DNA of 18,866 nucleotides from JBDRED01 sp043820025 [NCBI: Elusimicrobiota bacterium] (lineage in GTDB: Bacteria; RUG730; JBDRED01): positions 1-18,866 of the forward strand of contig JBDRED010000018.1 of NCBI GenBank assembly GCA_043820025.1, written 5' to 3'. A program made the position numbers and the translations under genes. Shown one piece after another: positions 2,972 to 17,989 of this stretch. The first letter of the stretch is position 1, and every line of letters begins with the position of its first letter. A model generated the notes under the pieces. That model made no database searches, was not told the origin of the DNA, and saw nothing but the letters and a program-made list of their open reading frames with translations.

Positions 2972-4069
2972 ATGGCTTTATCTATCGGCATTGTCGGCCT
3001 TCCAAATGTGGGAAAATCAACGCTTTTTAACGCGATCACAAACGCTTCGGCAGAAGCGCAAAATTATCCATTCTGCACTATAGAACCTAATACCGGAATA
3101 GTGCCTATACCTGATCCAAGGCTGGATGTTTTATCAAAGATGAGTAAATCCGAAAAAACCATTCCGGCAACAATAACATTCGTTGATATTGCAGGCCTTG
3201 TAAAGGGCGCGTCAAAAGGAGAAGGACTTGGAAATAAATTTCTTTCGCATATACGAGAGGTGTCTGCTATAGCGCATGTTGTAAGATGTTTTGAGGACGC
3301 AAATGTTACGCACGTTGAAGGCAGTATTGACCCTATCAGAGACATTGAAACAATAAATCTTGAATTAATTCTTTCTGATCTTGATACAGCTATAAAGATG
3401 CGCGACAATACCGAAAAACGCGCAAAACATTCGGCAGACCAAGAAATAAAAGACAGAAGCATACTGCTAAATAAAATAAATCAAACACTGGAACAGAATC
3501 AACCTATACGCAGTCTTTCATTAAACCGGGAAGAAGAAATACTTCTTAAGGGAATGAATTTTCTTACTTCAAAAAAACTAATCCAGGTATGCAACATAAG
3601 CGAGGATATGCTTGGCAAACCCTCTAAGTATGTTGATATTGTAAAAGAATACACAGAAAAAGCAGGCGACGAGTTTGCTGTTATTTCAGTAAAAATCGAG
3701 GAAGAGATATCAAAATTAAGCGGACAGGAGAGAGATGAATACCTCGATGAATTAGGGATAAAAGAATCCGGCCTTGACCTAATAGCGCATAAATGCTTTT
3801 CTTTGCTGGGCCTGCAAACATATCTCACAACAGGCGTAAAAGAAACAAGGGCATGGACTATTAAAAAAGGCGACACAGCTCCTCAAGCAGCCGGCGTTAT
3901 ACATACAGACTTTGAACGCGGATTTATTAGAGCTAATGTTGTTTCATACAATGATTTTGTAAAGCTTGGGGGATTTAAAGAAGCAAAGGAAAAAGGAGTT
4001 TTAAGGCAGGAAGGCAGAGATTATATTATGCAGGACGGAGATATAGTTGAATTTTTATTTAATGTATAA
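2972..4069 (+). CDS. ychF: Redox-regulated ribosome-binding ATPase YchF (Obg/OLA1 family)
   Basis: YchF is a cytoplasmic P-loop NTPase that binds ribosomes and, unusually for its class, prefers ATP. At 365 residues it is full length. The P-loop GLPNVGKST is at 9-17, NYPFCTIEPN at 31-40, DIAGLVKGASKGEGLGN at 72-88, and NISE (208-211) occupies the NxxE position that replaces the GTP-specifying NKxD. The C-terminal TGS-like domain is intact: TIKKGDTAPQAAGVIHTDFE at 296-315, then FIRANVVSYNDF and a DGDIVEFLFNV end. AAAGGA lies 7 nt before the ATG. It is monocistronic and convergent with the downstream membrane-protein gene, with only 18 nt between the stop codons. Confidence 0.97.
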   Translation: MALSIGIVGLPNVGKSTLFNAITNASAEAQNYPFCTIEPNTGIVPIPDPRLDVLSKMSKSEKTIPATITFVDIAGLVKGASKGEGLGNKFLSHIREVSAIAHVVRCFEDANVTHVEGSIDPIRDIETINLELILSDLDTAIKMRDNTEKRAKHSADQEIKDRSILLNKINQTLEQNQPIRSLSLNREEEILLKGMNFLTSKKLIQVCNISEDMLGKPSKYVDIVKEYTEKAGDEFAVISVKIEEEISKLSGQERDEYLDELGIKESGLDLIAHKCFSLLGLQTYLTTGVKETRAWTIKKGDTAPQAAGVIHTDFERGFIRANVVSYNDFVKLGGFKEAKEKGVLRQEGRDYIMQDGDIVEFLFNV

Positions 4070-8493: not shown

Positions 8494-10553
8494 TGCAGAA
8501 AATATTTGCCTAAATTATAAATCAGCCAGGACGCGCCATACGCAGCCGAGGTAGTATACATAACCATAAAAATTGTCCATGCCAAAGAAAATGATTCTTT
8601 GTAAAACACAATAGTCGCTGATAGGCATGGAACATATAAGAGAACAAATATTATCAGGCTTAACGCAGCGCTAGCTGTAAAATGTTTATCCTTTTGCAAA
8701 ACGCTCTTTAGCCCGCCCTGCATATAATCCTCTGTTTCACTGCTATAAATCGTAGAAAGGCTTGAAACAATAATTTCCTTCGCTGAAATTCCGCTGATAA
8801 GCGCTATACCTATCCGCCAGTCAAAACCAAGCGGCCTTATAGCAGGCTCTATAACCTTGCCCATCTTCCCTGCATAACTATCCTGCAGTTTACTAAATTC
8901 TACGCCTATCCTTTCAGGCGAAGTTTTTTTCGATATTGGGAAATTACTTAGAAACCAAACAACAATGGAAGCTAAAAGAATTATTGTGCCGGCTTTTTTT
9001 ATATAAAGCCATGCTTTTTCCCACATATGCATAATAATATTAATAAATGTCGGCATACGATACGGCGGCAGTTCCATTACAAACGGCTCGCTCTCTCCGG
9101 AAAGCATTGTTTTTTTTAAAAGCTTAGCTGTAATCAGCGCAGCGCACACTCCGAATAAATAAACGCAAAACATTATTGTCCCTGAGATATTTTCAGAAAA
9201 AAACGCGCCTATTAATAGAACATAAATAGGCAGTTTTGCGCCGCAGCTGATAAAAGGAATAACCAGCATTGTAGCAAGCTGGTCATTTCTGTTTTTCAAA
9301 GTTCTGCACGCCATAAGCGCAGGCACACTGCATCCAAAACCCATTATCATAGGAATAAAAGACCTGCCATGAAGGCCTATCATATGCATGAACCTGTCCA
9401 CTAAAAACGCAGCCCTTGCCATATACCCTGACTGCTCCATAAATGAAATTGCCATAAATAAAATTAGAATATTTGGCAGAAAAACAAGAACTCCTCCAAC
9501 GCCGCCTATAATTCCGTCAACAATAACCGAGCGTATTATGCCTGCGCTTAAAAAATTACGTAAAATATCCTGCAGAAACCAAAAAAAACTCTGCATCCAT
9601 TCCATGGGTATACTGCCCAGTTTAAAGGTTATATGAAATACGATCCACATAAACAAAAGAAACAATGGTATTCCTAAAATTCTATTTAATAAGACCGCGT
9701 CTATTTTTTCAGTCTTAGTAGGTTCTGTCTGCTCAGAAATTTTAACTGCTTCAAGCACAGCTCCATGAACAAAGGAATATCTTTCCTGCGAAATAATAAC
9801 CTCAGGCTCCATCTCATAATGCGTTTTCAGCCTCTCAATACTTTTATTAATTAAATGATTAATCTCAACCCATATCACCCTATTATGCAGGATGCTGTAA
9901 ACCGGCTGATCCTTTTCAATGAGTTTTATCGCAAGCCATCTTAGAGAATATTTTTCAGAGAGTTCTCCATCCTTTTGTAAGACAGCGCTGATTAATTCTA
10001 TCTCCTGCTCTAACTCAGTTTCATAAAATAATTTATTGCGCTTATAATCTGATTTTATAAATGCAATTACATTATCTAATAAATTATTTATTCCTTGTTT
10101 TTTTACTGCTGATGTTGGAACGAGCGGAACGCCGATAAGCGTGGCAAGATACTGAACATTAATCTCAATACCAAGATCCTTTAATTCATCGAACATATTT
10201 AAAGCGATAATAAGAGGCTGGTCAAGCTCCATAAGCTGAACTGCAAATGCAAGGTTTCTATTGAGGTTTGTGCTGTCAACAACATCTACAATTAAATCTG
10301 GCTTTTCATTAACAAGAAAATTTCTGGTAACTGCTTCTTCCTGAGTATAGGGCGAGAGGCTGTAAGTTCCGGGCATATCAATAAACTTAATAGTATAACC
10401 TTTATACTCTGCTATGCCTTCTTTATATGTAATGGTTACGCCGGGCCAATTACCAACATGCTGTCTTGCTCCGGTCAGCGCATTGAAAATACTACTTTTT
10501 CCGGAATTCGGATTACCTGCAATTGCCACGACCATATCTATTTTTTTTACCAT
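8490..10553 (-). CDS. feoB: Ferrous iron transporter FeoB
   Basis: FeoB imports Fe(II) across the inner membrane. At 687 residues it carries a full G domain: G1 GNPNSGKS 13-20, G2 around Thr40 in NWPGVT, G3 DMPG 59-62, G4 NMFD 119-122 and G5 TSA 147-149. A helical GDI-like region spans about 180-270 and the membrane domain about 290-687. Gate motifs are present: GFGCSVPALMACRTL (405-419, Cys408), IPFISCGAKLPIY (432-444, Cys437) and YVPCLSATI (640-648, Cys643), plus SGISAKEIIVSSL (587-599). The ATG at 10551-10553 lies 41 nt inside feoA; a second Met at codon 7 would still overlap feoA by 23 nt. The operon is controlled by the iron-box promoter at 10846-10881. Confidence 0.97.
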   Translation of the reverse strand: MVKKIDMVVAIAGNPNSGKSSIFNALTGARQHVGNWPGVTITYKEGIAEYKGYTIKFIDMPGTYSLSPYTQEEAVTRNFLVNEKPDLIVDVVDSTNLNRNLAFAVQLMELDQPLIIALNMFDELKDLGIEINVQYLATLIGVPLVPTSAVKKQGINNLLDNVIAFIKSDYKRNKLFYETELEQEIELISAVLQKDGELSEKYSLRWLAIKLIEKDQPVYSILHNRVIWVEINHLINKSIERLKTHYEMEPEVIISQERYSFVHGAVLEAVKISEQTEPTKTEKIDAVLLNRILGIPLFLLFMWIVFHITFKLGSIPMEWMQSFFWFLQDILRNFLSAGIIRSVIVDGIIGGVGGVLVFLPNILILFMAISFMEQSGYMARAAFLVDRFMHMIGLHGRSFIPMIMGFGCSVPALMACRTLKNRNDQLATMLVIPFISCGAKLPIYVLLIGAFFSENISGTIMFCVYLFGVCAALITAKLLKKTMLSGESEPFVMELPPYRMPTFINIIMHMWEKAWLYIKKAGTIILLASIVVWFLSNFPISKKTSPERIGVEFSKLQDSYAGKMGKVIEPAIRPLGFDWRIGIALISGISAKEIIVSSLSTIYSSETEDYMQGGLKSVLQKDKHFTASAALSLIIFVLLYVPCLSATIVFYKESFSLAWTIFMVMYTTSAAYGASWLIYNLGKYFLH

Positions 10554-10979: not shown

Positions 10980-11597
10980 TTATTTCGCTTTTCTTGTCAG
11001 GTAATTGACGATGTTTGATGTGATGTGCTCTAAGCAGTCAGTTAGATTTACGCCTTCCTGTGAGTGTACTGCGGCAATAATAATCTTTGATTTCTTTGTA
11101 TCAAATAACACTACCTCTACGCTTAATCTTGCAGGCGCCGGAAACTCCGGATATGCATCTTCTTCCCTAATCTCAGTTATTACTCCGGCCAAGACAAGAT
11201 CTTCCTTAAACGCTTTCAATGCTTTTACATTAAGAGAAGCAGGCTCTATATCAATTAATTCAAACTTTACGGGAATACGCGACCTGTCTAACATTCTCTT
11301 TATATAAAGCCCGGGCATATCAATAAAGTCTCTATTGATTTTTCCATCCAAAAGAGGCGCATTAATAAATTTTGTAACCCCTAATGTTTTATAATTTTTA
11401 TAATTGAAATTCTTATCGCACCATACCTTATTTAAATCCTCATCCTTAATCATCCCATCATAAGAAGAAAGCCTTACGTCTCTTTTTATATATTCGGCCT
11501 TATCTTCTTTAACAGGCGCAGTAATTTTTTGGGAAGGTTTTGCATAAGCATATACTGCAACTAAAAATATAAATAGTAATATTTGTAAGCTCTTCAT
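10980..11597 (-). CDS. Exported protein of unknown function
   Basis: Residues 1-19 form a signal peptide ending AYA before KPSQ, with no lipobox Cys, so the mature protein is probably soluble in the periplasm. The 205-residue protein has a W59CDKNFNYKNYKTLGV stretch and two alpha/beta segments. VLAGVITEIREED near 135-147 and LSVEVVLFDTKKSKIIIAAV at 158-177 recall small envelope proteins of the DUF4410/DUF4136 type, but I cannot assign one. The ATG at 11595-11597 has no Shine-Dalgarno sequence; TAAAAT lies 6 nt upstream, so it may be another leaderless gene. It points the same way as feoAB but is separated from it by 155 bp and its own promoter region. Confidence 0.75.
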   Translation of the reverse strand: MKSLQILLFIFLVAVYAYAKPSQKITAPVKEDKAEYIKRDVRLSSYDGMIKDEDLNKVWCDKNFNYKNYKTLGVTKFINAPLLDGKINRDFIDMPGLYIKRMLDRSRIPVKFELIDIEPASLNVKALKAFKEDLVLAGVITEIREEDAYPEFPAPARLSVEVVLFDTKKSKIIIAAVHSQEGVNLTDCLEHITSNIVNYLTRKAK

Positions 11598-11652
11598 AAT
11601 TTTATTTTAGCAAATTATATTTAAAAACAACAGCAGATATTCAAACCGGCAG

Positions 11653-11672
11653 TGTCAAGAAAGTTTCTGACA
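11653..11672. repeat. Palindrome TGTCAAGAAAGTTTCTGACA
   Basis: This 20-bp near-palindrome (TGTC/GACA and AGAAA/TTTCT arms) lies in the gap between the 11597 gene and the 13256 gene. It is followed by AAGCCTGGGCGGGGTTTACAGC. It could be an operator or the remnant of a transposon end; no transposase is nearby. Confidence 0.3.
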
Positions 11673-11725
11673 TTTTAAGCCTGGGCGGGGTTTACAGCTT
11701 TTTTTCGCAATGCTTAAATACATTT

Positions 11726-11764
11726 GTCATTGCGGGCGCTTTGCGCAACACGGCAATCTTAGCC
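11726..11764. repeat. Dispersed palindromic repeat, diverged single arm
   Basis: GTCATTGCGGGCGCTTTGCGC...GGCAATCTTAGCC is the GTCATTGC/GGCAATCTT variant seen in the right part of the element at 4805. GCGC pairing gives a hairpin about 50-90 nt after the stop of the 11817 gene, so it may help end that transcript. Confidence 0.55.
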
Positions 11765-11816
11765 AAATTAATATACAAACAATACCCCATTTATTCGCGC
11801 CTCTAACTGCTGAACC

Positions 11817-13256
11817 TTACACTGCTCTATCTAATTTGTCAAATAACATCATATTCTGATCATAATTTCTACCATTCCGGTCAAAATGTGTTACAAGCAT
11901 GTTTGCTGTATTAAACGCTTCTTTAACGCCTGTGTTTTCACCATTCAAAATCGTCCCTAAGCCCTCGCTCAATTTTCCAAACAGTTCAGCCCACATGCCA
12001 AATGTAACATTCTCGACTACAGGGGGAGCAGCAAGATTTCTTTCTTGTGTATAGACAATGCCGTCATATGTTAGATAATTGCCATCTTCAAGTTTTATTT
12101 CTCCTCTTGCTTTATCTAGCAAATATAGCTTTTTCAAATTAAAAAATGCATTTAATATTTTATCGTAATCTATACTCTTACCTGTCATCTCATATATAGC
12201 GCGCTTAACTTTATCAATATTATCCCACATCTGCTTTCGCATTTCTCTATCGCCGATTTCCTTAATATTTAACAGCGTATCGCAGACATCAATTATTTCT
12301 TCTTGAAATTTTTTCGCGTATTTTTGATTATCTCTCATTAGAATCTCATCATGCTTAACAGCTCCTTCGTTAATCTCCATTTTCTCATGTTCCTTTATTT
12401 CAGTAATCAGCTTCTCATAATCCTCTTTAGCAAGAATCCCTCTCATTATTTCCAATATATTGCCAAAACGCTCTGATATTCGCATTGTATGAACATTGCC
12501 TGTCACGGCTTTTACAACAGCTAAATACGGAAGTTCTTGTTTCAAGCCTGTTAGTTTGTCTTTCAGCTCAATATACTCGACATCCCAGGCCGGTTCTATG
12601 TTCCCTTCAGATTTTTTCTGTAAATCTTTTAGAGGATTGTCAAAACCCTCAGCAACAGACTTTAAAGTTACTATTTGATACATACTGTCTATTGCATCTA
12701 CAGCTTTGCCAAAGAGTGATATCTGAGTTTTGCCGGCATCACTGTGCCCTATGCCGGTTTCAATATCTGCAATATCATGACCATGTTCTTTTTTATATTC
12801 TTCCCTATATTTTTGCATAGGAGTCAGCAAATCATCTTTTGTTAAAGCATTTATTCCACCAATAAAAAAACTCTCTCCCCCACTGTTTGTTATATCCGCG
12901 TAAATATACGGATAATACAAATACATTAAATCAAAATTGTCCGGGCCGTTAGGAAAGTTATATTTTATACCATGGCCTTTTAGCGCGGGAAGTAGTCCTG
13001 AGGTGAACACAGAATTTAGGTCATTGTACGCCTGTTGAATACCTTCTTGGGATAGATTTAACCTTTTTCCCATTTCTTCAAGAATATGCAGCATAATAAC
13101 CGTATATTTAAAAATCTGCATATTACCATTAACATCTTTCGAATTAAATTTCAATAATATTTCGTTTAGCGTTTCCTCATCCTGACCGGCTAAGAAATGC
13201 CAGTGCAGAACTAAATATTTATATAACTCGTTTCGTTTACTTTTTTTGCGCAGCAT
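11817..13256 (-). CDS. Second ORF of the giant-protein locus, probable frameshifted C-terminal part
   Basis: The 479-residue product starts at an ATG (13254-13256) 20 nt inside the 3' end of the giant gene, in the +1 frame. It has no signal peptide and only a weak AAAGA before the ATG. Residues 10-100 match degenerate repeats of the giant protein: ELYKYL...HFLAGQDEETLNEIL aligns with DLYKKF...VFDMQDDSRNGL, and RLNLSQEGIQQAYNDLNSVF (65-84) aligns with NLSISNDQLNQRVNDIGNKLF in the upstream ORF. Its C-terminus (NMLVTHFD...MMLFDKLDRA) may be a truncated further repeat. The middle is charged and helical (about 205-385), without a known domain. It most likely began as the C-terminal quarter of the giant protein; whether it is now made separately, by slippage, or only appears split by an error is open. 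Confidence 0.7.
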   Translation of the reverse strand: MLRKKSKRNELYKYLVLHWHFLAGQDEETLNEILLKFNSKDVNGNMQIFKYTVIMLHILEEMGKRLNLSQEGIQQAYNDLNSVFTSGLLPALKGHGIKYNFPNGPDNFDLMYLYYPYIYADITNSGGESFFIGGINALTKDDLLTPMQKYREEYKKEHGHDIADIETGIGHSDAGKTQISLFGKAVDAIDSMYQIVTLKSVAEGFDNPLKDLQKKSEGNIEPAWDVEYIELKDKLTGLKQELPYLAVVKAVTGNVHTMRISERFGNILEIMRGILAKEDYEKLITEIKEHEKMEINEGAVKHDEILMRDNQKYAKKFQEEIIDVCDTLLNIKEIGDREMRKQMWDNIDKVKRAIYEMTGKSIDYDKILNAFFNLKKLYLLDKARGEIKLEDGNYLTYDGIVYTQERNLAAPPVVENVTFGMWAELFGKLSEGLGTILNGENTGVKEAFNTANMLVTHFDRNGRNYDQNMMLFDKLDRAV

Positions 13257-16200
13257 TCTTTAGCTTATCATAAAAAACACAGAAATTTAAAGCTCTCTTA
13301 AGAAAGTTTTCTAATACTACTCTGTTCAATTCTTGGCTTTGAAGCTCACACGCCATTTGCGCAAGAATATTATTATTTAATGCCAATACCTCATAACCAA
13401 ATTTATCGGCAAAAACGTCAAAGAGCGACTCATACTCATACTTAATATTTTCCCTTATTATTCCAACCTTAGTACTGCCAATACATTTCAACACTCTATC
13501 TGTGAACTTACTTATCTCGTCCGGCTGTAAAAAAAGCATAAGATATCTCAGCATTGGAGAGTTCTGATACCTCATCTGCATGTCCTGCGCATCCAATACA
13601 GCCTTATTTGTAGCAAACAAATCAAGCCGGTCTTTTGTAATATACTGCATAAGTTCTTGTAAGCGCGGATTACCCCGAATAATTTCGTTCTGTGTTGTAT
13701 TATCTGTTCGGGTTATGCCTGGCGCTGGCGCTGTTGGTAGTGTTGCGGGCCGCTGTATTGTTGCTGGCACTGCCTGGTTCGTTGGTGTTGATGCTGCATG
13801 CCCGGCATCCTTATGTTTATATTGTCTTCCAAATACAGCAGGGAAACCCTGTTCGCTTACACGTTTAAGCAATTCATCCCCCCCTTCAACTATTTTTTCC
13901 CATTCATTTATTAGAAGCGCGCCTATTCGTTCCGGCAGTTTTGTTGAATCATCCTGTTTGATAAATTGTTCCTCTATTCTCATATATTTGTAAAATAATC
14001 CTTTTTGACCGAATAACTTATTGCCAATATCGTTTACTCTTTGATTGAGTTGATCGTTTGAAATACTCAGATTGTTTGCGACTATCCTTTTTATTATCCT
14101 TATTGTTACTTCAGTTTCTATGATATTACCTTCAATACCATAAATACTTTCGCCTTTAAATTTATCAGTATATAACCTTGTTTGATCTTCTTTTTGCATA
14201 TCAAATACCATCATAAGATACGGCTTAAAAAACTCGTATGTATCTTCTACATACTCTCCATTGTTCTCCTTTATAGACATATTCCAAGCATTTACCATAC
14301 CGTACCAGTCGCACAAGTTTTGAACCTGAATGGGAAATGTTATACCCTGAGGATTTGTATAGTATGCTTCATTGTCAAAGTAATGCCGAATCATTAGAAT
14401 AAAGATATTGTTGTCTTTAATAAATGTATTTTCTCCAAATGCGTTATAAACTTTTGTATACGTTTCTTCAATCATATCGATTTTCCCGGTTTTTTTCGTA
14501 CGCATTACAAGAAACTCTTTCCTATGTTTTTCAAGATTTTGCATACCCGGTTTCATAGGTGCAGGAGTACTTTTATCCTGAAATTTTGCAGGTTTCGCGC
14601 TATTTTGACCTCCGGCGCTATTTCCCTTAGCCTGCGGTCCGGGCGCTGATGAGCCTTGAGTTTCTCTGCCAATGATGTTATTAATATTAGTCTCAACAGT
14701 ATCCAAAGAATTAACATTAGTATCAATTGTGGGTATTAATCCATTTCTACTGTCGTCCTGCATATCAAATACGTCCATTAACGTATTTTCAAACTTTTTG
14801 TATAGATCTACATCAGAAAGTGGAGCTTTTAATGCTTTATTCAATTTTTTTAACTTATCATACCACTGAAGAAACGCATCTATCCTTTCACTAAACTTAT
14901 TGTCTTTGTGTTCAATATCTGTATACAGTTTTATTAGCTGTATAAAAATATTACTTTTTGTTCTTAACACATCCGCGCCAAATATTTCCAGCATTCTTTG
15001 CCCAAAATCGCCAAACATCCTCAGGCCATTTTGATCGTCAATAATTTTTTTGATCAGAACGAGATCATAAATCCATAAATAGCGCAATATCGGGTACTCA
15101 TCAAATACTCCTTTATTCTTCGCATACATTCCGCTACCGGTTGTTGCCACATTATATGTTCTGACTTTCATCGCGTAATCCTCATAATCTTTGTCAGACT
15201 CAGGTATAATTTTAGCCAGCCAATCAGCATCTTTAATCATCAAATTCCTGCCTTCAAGATATAATTCCTCATTACTCTTCTGTGTCTGCGCTGTTTTTGT
15301 TACCGTTGTTGTTGTTGTTGTTTGTGTTTCTGTTCCATTATTATCGACATTGCTTTTGCTGCTCTTTCCCAATGTTCTTCTTTCCCCTGAAAAAGTTCCT
15401 TTTCCTTTGCTTAAAGACTGCTTTATGCCAAGTTTAACGCCTAACGCTTTCTCAAATGTATATCTAGTTTTGCCCATATATCCTTCTTGCTCTGCCAATG
15501 GCAGCATTGCAAGCCTGTGGCTAAGCTCATCATACCTACTAGCGCCATATTCTTCAAAAACGTTGGAAGCAATTTTTGCAACCTGATCCTCTAAAATATC
15601 TATAGTTCCTGCATATTGAGATGTTGCTTTATTTAAATATCCTGCAACGTTATTTGTATCATCTGTCTTACCCAGCTCTGAAACTTTTTGTTTACGTCGC
15701 TTTTCCGCCTGTTGAAGAAGATTCGTTAAATTCTGTTTATAATGTATAATCAGCTCGTTCTCAAGCCTTTCATGCAGTATAATCTGGTTAATAAAAACGC
15801 TTTCTTTTCTCTCTTCCATTAAAACAGTATATAGCGAATCAGAGATAAATAGCGTATTGTTATGAATCATTAAATGCGCCCAGTTTTTGCTCTTATCAGA
15901 AAATACAGCAGGAAAAACTTTGAAAAAGCCTTGGCCTAAACCAGGAAAATAGCTTTTTAATCTTTGAAGAAAATTCTCCATAATTTCATTTTTTCGACCA
16001 ATTACATCTGTTATAGAAACATTATTAGTATTTACTATTGTATTTATCAGAGCTGTTTTAGGCTCCCGGAGGTTAGCATTGTTTTGTGTTAATAACCTTT
16101 GGTAGAATTGTTTTTTCAAAATATTCTCTTGTGGAGTAACCATTTGCATAGAGGAATCCGCAATAACCCTCAATCCTGCCAGCATATTGTCTACAATATC

Positions 16201-17973
16201 TCTCCATGACCCGCTGTGCAGGGCTGTTGTTGGCCCGGATTCTGTAAGCTCGAATTTGCTTTCCTCATTTTTCTTAAATACCAGGGTCATCTGATTCCTA
16301 TCCGGACTTTGGCATGTCACTGTTATAGAATCATCGTCATTCTTAAAACTAATCTGAGCGCCCGGTCCCATACTCATAACAGTTTCTGCAACAATCCCAA
16401 TCACAGGCAGTATTGCATCCTGGCCAAAAACACTCGCAAGCTCAAGCATACCAGCAAGATTACAAGGTATAAATCCCGGCGTAACATTCTGCCAATGAGC
16501 CTGCTCGCATAAACGCTTAACATAAATTTTCTTATCAAAGCTCTCTCTAATAACAGGCCTGATAACAATATAGGATATGCCTTTTGCGGCAAGAAGCTCT
16601 TTAATGCCCTGAGTATGGTATCCGCCTGTTACCATAACATTAACTTTGGAACCGGCTTTAGCCATTCTTTGAAACATATTATTAAGCATCTCTTCGTTAC
16701 GTTTATTTGCCAGGCTGTAAAAACTATTCATATTCTTTTCAATGTCTCTGATATTCGCAGTAAACTTATCAAACCCGTCATTGCGGATAAGATTGCCTAA
16801 TATATCCCTGCCGTTCTTATAAAAATTATCCTCATTCTCCTCCCATTTCTGCGAATCATAAACGCTTGCGCTGTTTTCCAAGTACCTGTCAAAGAGCTTT
16901 ACATACCTCTCGCAGTATACAAGCTTTTCAGCATCGCCTTTGCCCTTTGCAAGCGCGCCCTTTATTTTAAACGCAATATCATCAACCTCAGCCAAAAGCT
17001 TAGTCTCGTTAATATTTGATAAGTAGTCCTGATATTTAAAATAGTTCGAAAGGCTTGGATAATGCTGCCCTATATTAATATTAATATTATTCCTATTAAT
17101 TATTTCCTTAAGGAATTTATAATAATCATTTGCGGCCTTGTTCTTAAAATCCTTTAGAGCCGCATAATCAGCATCAGGGATAATATCCATTATTTGAGCT
17201 GTTACAAGTCCTGCCTCAGCGCTCACCTCAGCTGAATTCAGTTCCGCTAAATCATTCTTTTTTATATATAACTCAAAGTTCGGATAATTAATTGAATGAT
17301 CTATATGCAATTTATCCAGCATTATTTTTAAATACTCAATATATTCATTAAGCGGATACCTGCAGTCATTATATTTTTTTTGGAGTTTTTCAAACTTGAT
17401 TAATTCAGGCGTATATAAAAGCTCTCTGCCCCTGTCTATTGCTCTATAAAGTTTATTAAAAAGCGCCTGTGACCGGTCTCTTGCCTGAACAGCATTATAC
17501 AATGAAAGAAAGTTTCGGTTATAAAGCTCATTAGTTTCTATGCCATATAACTTGAGCGTTTTCGGATATCTTATTGTATACAGCTCAGGCCCTGTGATAT
17601 AGCCCAAGCCTAAGAAGAACTGCGTTATTTTTTCTCTGGCATCCTTATCCTTTATTCTGCCTAATACAGATGTGTCAATACCGCCTGCAGAACCTTCCAC
17701 GCCTATCCATGAAAGATCGCTGCCAAACCGCTTCTTTAGAAGATATATAATTTTGCTGATATTCTCCTGCGCCTCTTTGTGGCAGTGGAGATTTTCAATG
17801 CAGTATATTATTTGCGATGATGCGCCTTTATAGCTGTCGGTTATTTGCCCGATATCCTGCGGAATACTAAGCTCCTGAACAATGCTTTGAGACGAAGCGG
17901 CAAATGCAAAATTTTGGCATACATTTAACATAAAACATACAACTAAAATTTTGGAAATTATTTTCCCTGTCAT
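13237..17973 (-). CDS. Giant secreted protein with a Tiki/ChaN-like N-terminal domain and degenerate repeats
   Basis: The product is 1578 residues from the ATG at 17971-17973; an in-frame TTG at 17991 would only add GGGGI read from the G-rich ribosome binding site. Residues 1-26 are a signal peptide (FAFAA). Residues about 55-475 form a domain with ENLHCHKEAQ (60-69), IGVEGSAGGID (90-100), YGIETNELY (143-151) and VTGGYHTQGI (448-457). The His/Glu and GxxH spacing resembles the Tiki/TraB/ChaN/EreA superfamily, which includes metal-dependent peptidases and haem-binding proteins; this is inference. Residues 690-750 contain ILHERLENELIIH, a possible degenerate metal site. From about 900 three degenerate repeats (about 904-1100, 1146-1382, 1429-end) are separated by Thr-rich (879-900), Gly/Pro/Ala (1102-1146) and Ala/Pro/Thr (1384-1429) linkers. 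The frame ends at an A7 tract, inside the third repeat. Confidence 0.85.
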   Translation of the reverse strand: MTGKIISKILVVCFMLNVCQNFAFAASSQSIVQELSIPQDIGQITDSYKGASSQIIYCIENLHCHKEAQENISKIIYLLKKRFGSDLSWIGVEGSAGGIDTSVLGRIKDKDAREKITQFFLGLGYITGPELYTIRYPKTLKLYGIETNELYNRNFLSLYNAVQARDRSQALFNKLYRAIDRGRELLYTPELIKFEKLQKKYNDCRYPLNEYIEYLKIMLDKLHIDHSINYPNFELYIKKNDLAELNSAEVSAEAGLVTAQIMDIIPDADYAALKDFKNKAANDYYKFLKEIINRNNININIGQHYPSLSNYFKYQDYLSNINETKLLAEVDDIAFKIKGALAKGKGDAEKLVYCERYVKLFDRYLENSASVYDSQKWEENEDNFYKNGRDILGNLIRNDGFDKFTANIRDIEKNMNSFYSLANKRNEEMLNNMFQRMAKAGSKVNVMVTGGYHTQGIKELLAAKGISYIVIRPVIRESFDKKIYVKRLCEQAHWQNVTPGFIPCNLAGMLELASVFGQDAILPVIGIVAETVMSMGPGAQISFKNDDDSITVTCQSPDRNQMTLVFKKNEESKFELTESGPTTALHSGSWRDIVDNMLAGLRVIADSSMQMVTPQENILKKQFYQRLLTQNNANLREPKTALINTIVNTNNVSITDVIGRKNEIMENFLQRLKSYFPGLGQGFFKVFPAVFSDKSKNWAHLMIHNNTLFISDSLYTVLMEERKESVFINQIILHERLENELIIHYKQNLTNLLQQAEKRRKQKVSELGKTDDTNNVAGYLNKATSQYAGTIDILEDQVAKIASNVFEEYGASRYDELSHRLAMLPLAEQEGYMGKTRYTFEKALGVKLGIKQSLSKGKGTFSGERRTLGKSSKSNVDNNGTETQTTTTTTVTKTAQTQKSNEELYLEGRNLMIKDADWLAKIIPESDKDYEDYAMKVRTYNVATTGSGMYAKNKGVFDEYPILRYLWIYDLVLIKKIIDDQNGLRMFGDFGQRMLEIFGADVLRTKSNIFIQLIKLYTDIEHKDNKFSERIDAFLQWYDKLKKLNKALKAPLSDVDLYKKFENTLMDVFDMQDDSRNGLIPTIDTNVNSLDTVETNINNIIGRETQGSSAPGPQAKGNSAGGQNSAKPAKFQDKSTPAPMKPGMQNLEKHRKEFLVMRTKKTGKIDMIEETYTKVYNAFGENTFIKDNNIFILMIRHYFDNEAYYTNPQGITFPIQVQNLCDWYGMVNAWNMSIKENNGEYVEDTYEFFKPYLMMVFDMQKEDQTRLYTDKFKGESIYGIEGNIIETEVTIRIIKRIVANNLSISNDQLNQRVNDIGNKLFGQKGLFYKYMRIEEQFIKQDDSTKLPERIGALLINEWEKIVEGGDELLKRVSEQGFPAVFGRQYKHKDAGHAASTPTNQAVPATIQRPATLPTAPAPGITRTDNTTQNEIIRGNPRLQELMQYITKDRLDLFATNKAVLDAQDMQMRYQNSPMLRYLMLFLQPDEISKFTDRVLKCIGSTKVGIIRENIKYEYESLFDVFADKFGYEVLALNNNILAQMACELQSQELNRVVLENFLKRALNFCVFYDKLKNAAQKK
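13241..13247 (-). other. A7 homopolymer at the frame junction of the giant locus
   Basis: On the coding strand the junction reads GCGCAAAAAAAGTAAACG. In the giant frame it ends CAA AAA AAG TAA. Loss of one A, or a +1 shift, gives CAA AAA AGT AAA CGA and continues into the 13256 ORF without a stop. This is the probable point of frameshift, slippage or base-calling error. Confidence 0.65.
15305..15322. repeat. Six-unit GTT trinucleotide repeat
   Basis: (GTT)6 on the plus strand encodes the Thr-rich run TTTTTT at residues 885-890 of the giant protein, the first inter-repeat linker. Trinucleotide expansion here keeps the frame, so linker length may vary between strains. Confidence 0.7.
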
Positions 17974-17977
17974 AATA

Positions 17978-17989
17978 CCCCCGCCCCCC
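17978..17989 (-). promoter_or_regulatory. G-rich ribosome binding site of the giant gene
   Basis: The coding strand reads GGGGGGCGGGGG then TATT and the ATG at 17973. G runs can pair with the anti-Shine-Dalgarno sequence through G-U wobble. A similar GGGGGG precedes the other exported repeat protein at 632. Confidence 0.5.

What the first reader, a model, noticed from the sequence alone, without database searches (positions are those of the whole stretch)
12957..13700. Giant protein gene appears split at an A7 tract; the repeat continues across the frame change
The 1578-codon frame stops at 13237 just after CAAAAAAAG. The next ORF, in the +1 frame, starts 20 nt earlier. Internal repeats show that its first ~100 residues belong with the upstream end: FYDKLKNAAQKK + SKRNELYKYL...HFLAGQDEETLNEIL parallels WYDKLKKLNKA...DLYKKF...VFDMQDDSRNGL. 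RLNLSQEGIQQAYNDLNSVF in ORF2 parallels NLSISNDQLNQRVNDIGNKLF in ORF1. So one ancestral protein of about 2,050 residues is either frameshifted, expressed by slippage on A7 to yield a short and a long secreted form, or mis-sequenced. Separate expression would leave ORF2 without a signal peptide.
Basis: partly seen in the sequence, partly recalled or inferred. Interest (0 to 1): 0.65.

Follow-up and report, generated by a model that had tools for sequence, protein, structure and literature searches.

The report
Secreted large-protein gene, probably frameshifted
Two overlapping genes in an uncultured bacterium are probably one secreted protein of about 2,050 residues whose reading frame is broken at a run of seven A's, an ordinary kind of break that only raw reads or a close relative can confirm.

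Summary
The coordinates, the A7 tract, the +1 frame and the 20-nt overlap are confirmed. ORF1 (1,578 aa) looks like a secreted modular protein: signal peptide (by eye), a roughly 460-aa head, then linker-separated repeats. Repeats A and B are related (0/500 shuffles); the third copy matches A (2/500; softer gaps 0/500) and stops inside the repeat, six codons before the stop. ORF2's first 85-90 residues fit the continuation of copy B (12/987 control windows, 14/3000 shuffles) but not that of copy A. So "one gene, one-base frameshift" is the best reading (about 0.6). Two natural overlapping genes remain possible (0.3): here feoA and feoB overlap by 41 nt with an A8 inside. Programmed slippage is unlikely (0.07): the tract is short and the needed direction is the rarer one. 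No convincing relative of ORF2 or of ORF1 501-1578 was found in 384 + 95 genomes, so the fused-frame test could not be done. More interesting is the head: a predicted EreC/ChaN-like fold with an H-E-R-H set kept in 84/84 aligned rows, at the N-terminus of frames of very different length in genomes titled Omnitrophota and Elusimicrobia.

The parts
17899..17973 (-). Signal peptide of ORF1, residues 1-25 (ends AFA), after a G-rich ribosome-binding region
   Evidence: translation; second-strongest of 14 start-site pairings, -9.9; signal peptide judged by eye, not predicted
16504..17886 (-). ORF1 residues 30-490: head domain shared with many proteins of genomes titled Omnitrophota and Elusimicrobia; predicted EreC/ChaN-like fold with about 290 helical residues between core strands
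   Evidence: 15/32, 161/384 and 49/95 genomes; AlphaFold2 pLDDT 88.1; VIA-align Z 9.8-7.2; H63 E93 R425 H453 in 84/84 rows; N-terminal place in 77/83 rows
15244..15378 (-). Thr-rich linker, ORF1 residues 866-910
   Evidence: composition scan
14659..15264 (-). Repeat A, ORF1 904-1105
14539..14718 (-). Pro/Ala/Ser/Gly-rich linker, ORF1 1086-1145
13819..14553 (-). Repeat B, ORF1 1141-1385
   Evidence: A-B z 9.8, 0/500 shuffles
13654..13848 (-). Pro/Ala/Thr-rich linker, ORF1 1376-1440
13240..13698 (-). Repeat C, first part only, ORF1 1426-1578; ends inside the repeat
   Evidence: A-C 2/500 and 0/500; B-C not significant; A+B profile, E 2.4e-5 for a single target
13240..13259 (-). 20-nt stretch in which both frames are open; holds the A7 (13241-13247) and ORF2's ATG
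13237..17973 (-). ORF1, 1,578 aa
11817..13256 (-). ORF2, 479 aa; its first 85-90 residues probably the missing rest of repeat C

Best explanation
ORF1 and ORF2 are the two parts of one gene for a secreted, modular protein of about 2,050 residues: signal peptide, EreC/ChaN-like head, a region without known relatives, linker-separated repeats A, B and C, then a C-terminal part without known relatives. A one-base length difference at the A7 tract (13241-13247) puts a stop six codons after the landmark YDKLK of repeat C. As the sequence stands, the exported product ends inside repeat C, and the rest is not made, or is made from the ATG in the overlap without a signal peptide. Shown: the frames, the tract, the repeats A-B and A-C, the head family. 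Inferred: that ORF2's start is the rest of repeat C, export, and that the break is a mutation or a sequence/assembly error (not separable here).
For: Repeat C matches A up to YDKLK, six residues before ORF1's end, and stops mid-repeat, while after the same landmark A runs on for about 44 residues and B for about 148 before a linker. Linkers precede A and follow A and B; none follows C within ORF1. ORF2 6-95 fits B's tail at the register set by the anatomy in 12/987 control windows and 14/3000 shuffles; the other two frames of the same DNA score -37 and -40 against 26 (the frame comparison used the 14-residue register). Both frames are open together for only 20 nt, and these hold the A7. ORF2's start pairs weakly with the anti-Shine-Dalgarno (-1.0 against -9.9 for ORF1). 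No terminator-like site and no promoter-like excess in 11500-13700. Other proteins with this head have frames from about 500 to 35,113 codons (rows listed).
Against: Tail of copy A: no similarity to ORF2 (497/987 controls; 590/5000). B against C directly: none (168/500). The A+B profile does not single out ORF2. Whole-ORF2 local searches with A or B do not beat shuffles (44/400 and 108/400). Coding signal is weak in both coding frames from about -120 to +60 nt around the tract. 24 other A/T runs of 7 or more lie inside ORFs of this window without cutting one short (25 of 31 runs are inside ORFs), so the sequence is not generally poor. feoA and feoB, two ordinary genes, overlap by 41 nt around an A8. 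Counting ORF2, 5 of 14 starts examined pair weakly, so a weak start site is not rare here. No orthologue with a fused frame was found.
Confidence: 0.6

Rival explanations
1. Two natural genes of one operon: ORF1 ends with a partial repeat and ORF2 is translated on its own, or by coupling, from the ATG that overlaps ORF1's end. ORF2 would be a cytoplasmic or otherwise exported partner.
For: ATG directly after an in-frame stop and one codon; feoA/feoB overlap by 41 nt around an A8 in this window; 24 other long A/T runs in ORFs do no harm; weak coding signal in both frames at the junction; copy A's tail does not resemble ORF2.
Against: ORF2's first 85-90 residues resemble the continuation of repeat B (12/987, 14/3000); ORF1 ends mid-repeat without the linker that follows A and B; weak start site (-1.0); no signal peptide seen in ORF2 (by eye).
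Confidence: 0.3
2. The A7 is a working slippage or phase-variation site: most product is the 1,578-aa secreted form and a minority of transcripts or cells make the long form.
For: A7 directly before the stop. Transcriptional slippage at an A11 lying 28 nt before a premature stop makes two needed length forms of Citrobacter rodentium TssM1, 20-25% (PMC4256274, passages). Slippage rises exponentially with run length (PMC5574713, passages).
Against: The tract is 7, not 11. In E. coli and Buchnera transcripts insertions, mostly of one base, prevail at A/T runs; deletions started within uninterrupted runs in under 1% (E. coli) and 21% (Buchnera) of cases, and no transcription error there restored a frame (PMC5574713); ORF2's frame needs loss of one base or gain of two. 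The heptamer A_AAA_AAG is in slippery register, but a -1 ribosomal shift there ends after nine residues (VNETSYINI*). No unusual fold around the tract (z -0.79). A/T runs of 7 or more are common here (31).
Confidence: 0.07

Closest known systems
Citrobacter rodentium tssM1 (transcriptional slippage at A11; PMC4256274, passages seen)
   Same: A-tract shortly before a stop, downstream frame carrying the rest of a longer protein
   Different: A7 not A11; the frame relation needs the rarer direction of slippage; no relative with a continuous protein was found; no expression data
EreC / ChaN / BcR135 / HopBA1 / PMT fold group (PMC7979712, passages seen)
   Same: The 7 best VIA-align rows are EreC (2), BcR135 (2), ChaN, HopBA1 and PMT (Z 9.8-7.2), i.e. 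EreC and four of the five proteins the paper names as sharing its fold. Invariant H63, E93, R425, H453 parallel EreC H50, E78, R261, H289; R-H spacing 28 in both, H-E 30 against 28
   Different: Apparently secreted; about 290 helical residues between core strands; 7-14% identity; Foldseek alone is not significant (best row EreC, E 0.044)
Huge/giant proteins of Omnitrophota and Elusimicrobiota (PMC11573180 and PMC12057145, passages seen; the West-Roberts preprint seen only as cited there)
   Same: The same head domain lies in frames reported up to 35,113 aa (G078)
   Different: 1,578 or about 2,050 residues, below the 5,000-residue definition of PMC11573180; in the rows listed nothing after residue ~590 matches

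Membership tests
EreC/ChaN-like fold group | Shared fold | tested here: met
   AlphaFold2 pLDDT 88.1; the seven best VIA-align rows are all of this group, Z 9.8, 9.3, 9.0, 8.8, 7.8, 7.6, 7.2, next row 6.8 unrelated. Caveat: Foldseek E 0.044, and the tool warns that Z under 13 can mislead for helical models
EreC/ChaN-like fold group | Catalytic H, E, R, H of Ere enzymes (H50, E78, R261, H289) | tested here: met
   H63, E93, R425, H453 in 84/84 rows; the correspondence rests on order and spacing, not on a residue-level superposition
EreC/ChaN-like fold group | Pfam PF04187 (ChaN) membership by sequence | tested here: inconclusive
   10 of 84 rows match, best E 0.0093; the window protein does not. 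Two other families match more rows (PAH_ZNF598, 24 rows, best 3e-6; DUF1722, 19 rows, best 3.5e-5); not looked into
EreC/ChaN-like fold group | Esterase activity or haem binding | not testable with these tools
   needs purified protein
Huge proteins (more than 5,000 residues) of PVC-type bacteria | More than 5,000 residues | tested here: not met
   1,578 aa, or about 2,050 if one gene
Programmed transcriptional slippage genes (tssM1-like) | Long A/T tract (A11 in the model case) | tested here: not met
   A7
Programmed transcriptional slippage genes (tssM1-like) | Tract kept in relatives, two products made | tested here: inconclusive
   no relative of the junction region found; products need RNA/protein data
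-1 ribosomal frameshift cassette | A_AAA_AAG in slippery register leading into the downstream ORF | tested here: not met
   heptamer in register, but the -1 frame stops after nine codons and is not ORF2's frame

The most novel reading that the evidence does not exclude
A shared secreted EreC/ChaN-like hydrolase head fronts a large class of long modular proteins in two phyla, and in this gene the length of the exported product is set by slippage or phase variation at the A7, giving a short form and a rarer long form.
Probability: 0.06. Interest if true: 0.6.

Novelty: new member of a known kind. Interest (0 to 1): 0.32.

Why it matters
If it is one broken gene, it is a caution about annotating long genes of uncultured bacteria as two proteins. 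The lasting point is the head domain: a predicted hydrolase-like module with invariant H-E-R-H that recurs, up to 24 matches in a genome, at the N-terminus of proteins of very different and sometimes extreme length in genomes titled Omnitrophota and Elusimicrobia, which would give proteins of unknown function a first testable activity.

Tried and rejected
ORF2 in genome contigs and viral contigs: 10 and 1 stretches matched a pattern, none a relative. ORF2 in 384 genomes of the phylum of G019: 3 matches, E 0.0024-0.0073, two of them over the same residues 71-159; in 95 genomes of the class of G003: 1, E 0.0021, residues 175-239. ORF1 501-1578: 1/384, E 0.0016, and 0/95 (which itself warns that an empty answer without a positive control shows nothing). 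Repeat profile A2 in 95 genomes: 7 matches at E <= 0.1, best 0.0025, short, 4 of 7 with stops inside. Pfam: no family for ORF1 at E <= 1; for ORF2 only NTNH_C at E 0.3, below its cut-off, taken as noise. PHROGs: E 0.03-0.09 only. PDB by sequence: nothing for ORF2 at E <= 1; the repeats were not searched there. PDB sequence hits of the head profile to centrins and calmodulin (best E 0.0033, helical part) were taken as composition of the helical region. NCBIfam: no family for the window's head. The fold of repeat B failed (pLDDT 48, 3 rows) and is not used. Viral fold library: nothing with E <= 0.001. C against ORF2 110-479 (17/500 and 3/500) hints at a further distant copy; not settled.

Organism: YchF is 70% identical to G003 (record title Elusimicrobia bacterium RIFOXYA2_FULL_47_53) and no other of the 95 genomes of that class matches at E <= 1e-130; the best elsewhere is 55%. 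A MetX+MetW tree (77 rows) leaves the window as an unresolved branch beside 8 Elusimicrobiota rows and a 42-row set rich in Omnitrophota. My notebook entry ('Elusimicrobiota, not Omnitrophota') was too firm; the lineage is left unplaced. An earlier count said 'exactly the 5 proteins' of the EreC paper; in fact it is EreC and four of the five (BcR136 is not among the rows). In one search two printed column heads are swapped: ORF2's frame is the one headed 'other'.
Full report
What is there. On the minus strand ORF1 (13237-17973, 1,578 aa) ends GCG CAA AAA AAG TAA, and ORF2 (11817-13256, 479 aa) starts with an ATG 20 nt before ORF1's end, in the +1 frame. ORF2's frame is closed just upstream (TAA AGA ATG), so both frames are open together only over 13240-13259, which contains the A7. 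An A7 lies in 1.4% of 20-nt coding windows of this DNA (214/15,165). That figure is after the fact, since the tract drew attention first.

Anatomy of ORF1. A signal peptide (by eye), a head domain (residues ~30-490), a region without known relatives (~500-865), and units A, B and C. Linker-like stretches rich in P, A, S, T, G, Q or N lie at 866-910, 1086-1145 and 1376-1440 (single shorter stretches reach the same threshold elsewhere in ORF1, and in ORF2 at 66-90 and 81-105). Units A and B are homologous (z 9.8, 0/500 shuffles). Unit C, 1426-1578, matches A (z 3.5, 2/500; gap 9: z 4.7, 0/500) but not B directly (168/500 and 189/500). A profile of A and B finds C (E 2.4e-5 for a single target) but scores ORF2 (0.043) like an unrelated ORF1 stretch (0.042). 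The A-C alignment runs to YDKLK, six residues before ORF1's end, and no linker follows. So ORF1 stops inside a repeat.

Does ORF2 continue it? I set the register by the landmark (six ORF1 residues follow it) and asked whether ORF2 6-95 fits the tail of B or A. With B, 12 of 987 overlapping control windows and 14 of 3,000 shuffles do as well (z 3.1). Skipping 0 residues gives 36/987 and 102/3,000; skipping 14, chosen after the fact, gives 1/987 and 9/3,000. With A nothing at any of the three (429, 497, 455 of 987). Free-ended tests give 87/5,000 and 7/224 for B, 590/5,000 and 47/224 for A; with softer gaps 72/3,000 and 20/215 for B, 1389/3,000 and 158/215 for A. Local searches of whole ORF2 with A or B do not beat shuffles (44/400, 108/400); C gives 15/400 at a different place, ORF2 230-370. 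A four-row MAFFT alignment put ORF2's start elsewhere.

Expression signals. ORF2's start pairs weakly with the anti-Shine-Dalgarno (-1.0; ORF1 -9.9), but with ORF2 counted 5 of the 14 starts examined are weak. In 11500-13700 promoter-like sites are not in excess (11, shuffles 9.2 +- 2.9) and no terminator-like site was found. The RNA around the tract is not unusually folded (z -0.79). Codon signal is weak in both coding frames from about -120 to +60 nt around the tract; the third frame scores higher near -90 but holds stops. Neither reading explains that well.

Separate genes remain possible. In the same window feoA and feoB, ordinary neighbours, overlap by 41 nt around an A8. And 24 other A/T runs of 7 or more, that A8 among them, lie in ORFs without cutting one short. 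These are the best arguments for two natural genes, or for a real break as against poor sequence.

Slippage. In C. rodentium tssM1 an A11 lying 28 nt before the stop gives 20-25% long form (PMC4256274, passages). In E. coli and Buchnera transcripts, insertions at A/T runs are mostly of one base and rise exponentially with run length; deletions seldom start within runs (under 1% in E. coli, 21% in Buchnera), and no error restored a frame (PMC5574713, passages). Here the tract is 7 and ORF2's frame is reached by loss of one base or gain of two. The in-register A_AAA_AAG leads in the -1 direction to a stop after nine codons. I put working slippage at 0.07.

Relatives. The window's genome is not held. 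ORF2 has no convincing relative in genome contigs or viral contigs, in 384 genomes of the phylum of G019 (titled Omnitrophota; 3 weak matches) or in 95 genomes of the class of G003 (titled Elusimicrobia; 1 weak). ORF1 501-1578 gives 1/384 weak and 0/95. The 384 were drawn from a larger group. The organism is an unplaced lineage: YchF 70% to one Elusimicrobia genome, at most 55% elsewhere, while a MetX+MetW tree leaves it unresolved.

The head domain. It is found in 15/32 genomes chosen by MetX similarity (E <= 1e-3), 161/384 (E <= 1e-20) and 49/95 (E <= 1e-3), with up to 24 matches in one genome. Frames in the rows listed run from about 500 to 35,113 codons (G078; that frame was not checked further). 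In 77 of 83 rows an in-frame stop lies at most 120 codons before the match; in the other 6 the fetched DNA ends first, so the head is N-terminal. In the rows listed no match passes residue ~590. AlphaFold2 with 84 rows gives pLDDT 88.1. VIA-align's seven best rows are HopBA1, ChaN, EreC (two), BcR135 (two) and PMT, Z 9.8 to 7.2: EreC and four of the five proteins that the EreC paper names as sharing its fold (PMC7979712, passages). Nine positions are invariant in 84/84 (H63 E93 G94 G144 E146 R425 G450 G451 H453). H63/E93/R425/H453 parallel EreC H50/E78/R261/H289 in order and spacing. The window protein alone of the 84 has E at 60, three before H63, where EreC has E47; the other 83 have Q. Against this: Foldseek alone was not significant (E 0.044), ChaN's Pfam model matches only 10/84 rows (best E 0.0093), and two other Pfam families match more rows. 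Literature searches listed no paper that I saw describe this domain; the library lacks bioRxiv and most subscription papers, and I saw passages of two of the listed papers on giant proteins only.

Verdict. One secreted gene of about 2,050 residues broken by one base at the A7, cause undecided (mutation or sequence error), 0.6; two natural overlapping genes 0.3; working slippage 0.07. As a finding about a break it is ordinary; the head domain deserves its own look.

Noticed in passing
16504-17886 (-): Head domain with EreC/ChaN-like predicted fold and invariant H-E-R-H, N-terminal in proteins of very different length in genomes titled Omnitrophota and Elusimicrobia.
   Followed up: yes
17794-17796 (-), ORF1 residue 60: The window protein has E where the 83 other aligned rows have Q, at the position of EreC E47 relative to the catalytic His.
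   Followed up: no
10513-10553 (-): feoA and feoB overlap by 41 nt and the overlap contains an A8 run: a second gene junction with a homopolymer in the same window.
   Followed up: no
13187-13367 (-): Codon-usage signal is weak in both coding frames around the junction; unexplained.
   Followed up: partly
12147-12569 (-), ORF2 230-370: Possible further distant repeat copy resembling unit C (15/400, 7/400 and 5/400 shuffles at three gap costs).
   Followed up: partly
17978-17989 (-): G-rich run GGGGGGCGGGGG just before ORF1's start, and a G7 at 13878-13884 inside ORF1: other homopolymers that could vary.
   Followed up: no
2972-4069 (+): YchF is 70% identical to one Elusimicrobia genome and no other of 95 in its class matches at E <= 1e-130, while the best MetW matches are Omnitrophota and the MetX+MetW tree is unresolved: unclear placement.
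   Followed up: partly
G078:C37:183594-184964: Head domain in a frame reported as 35,113 aa.
   Followed up: no
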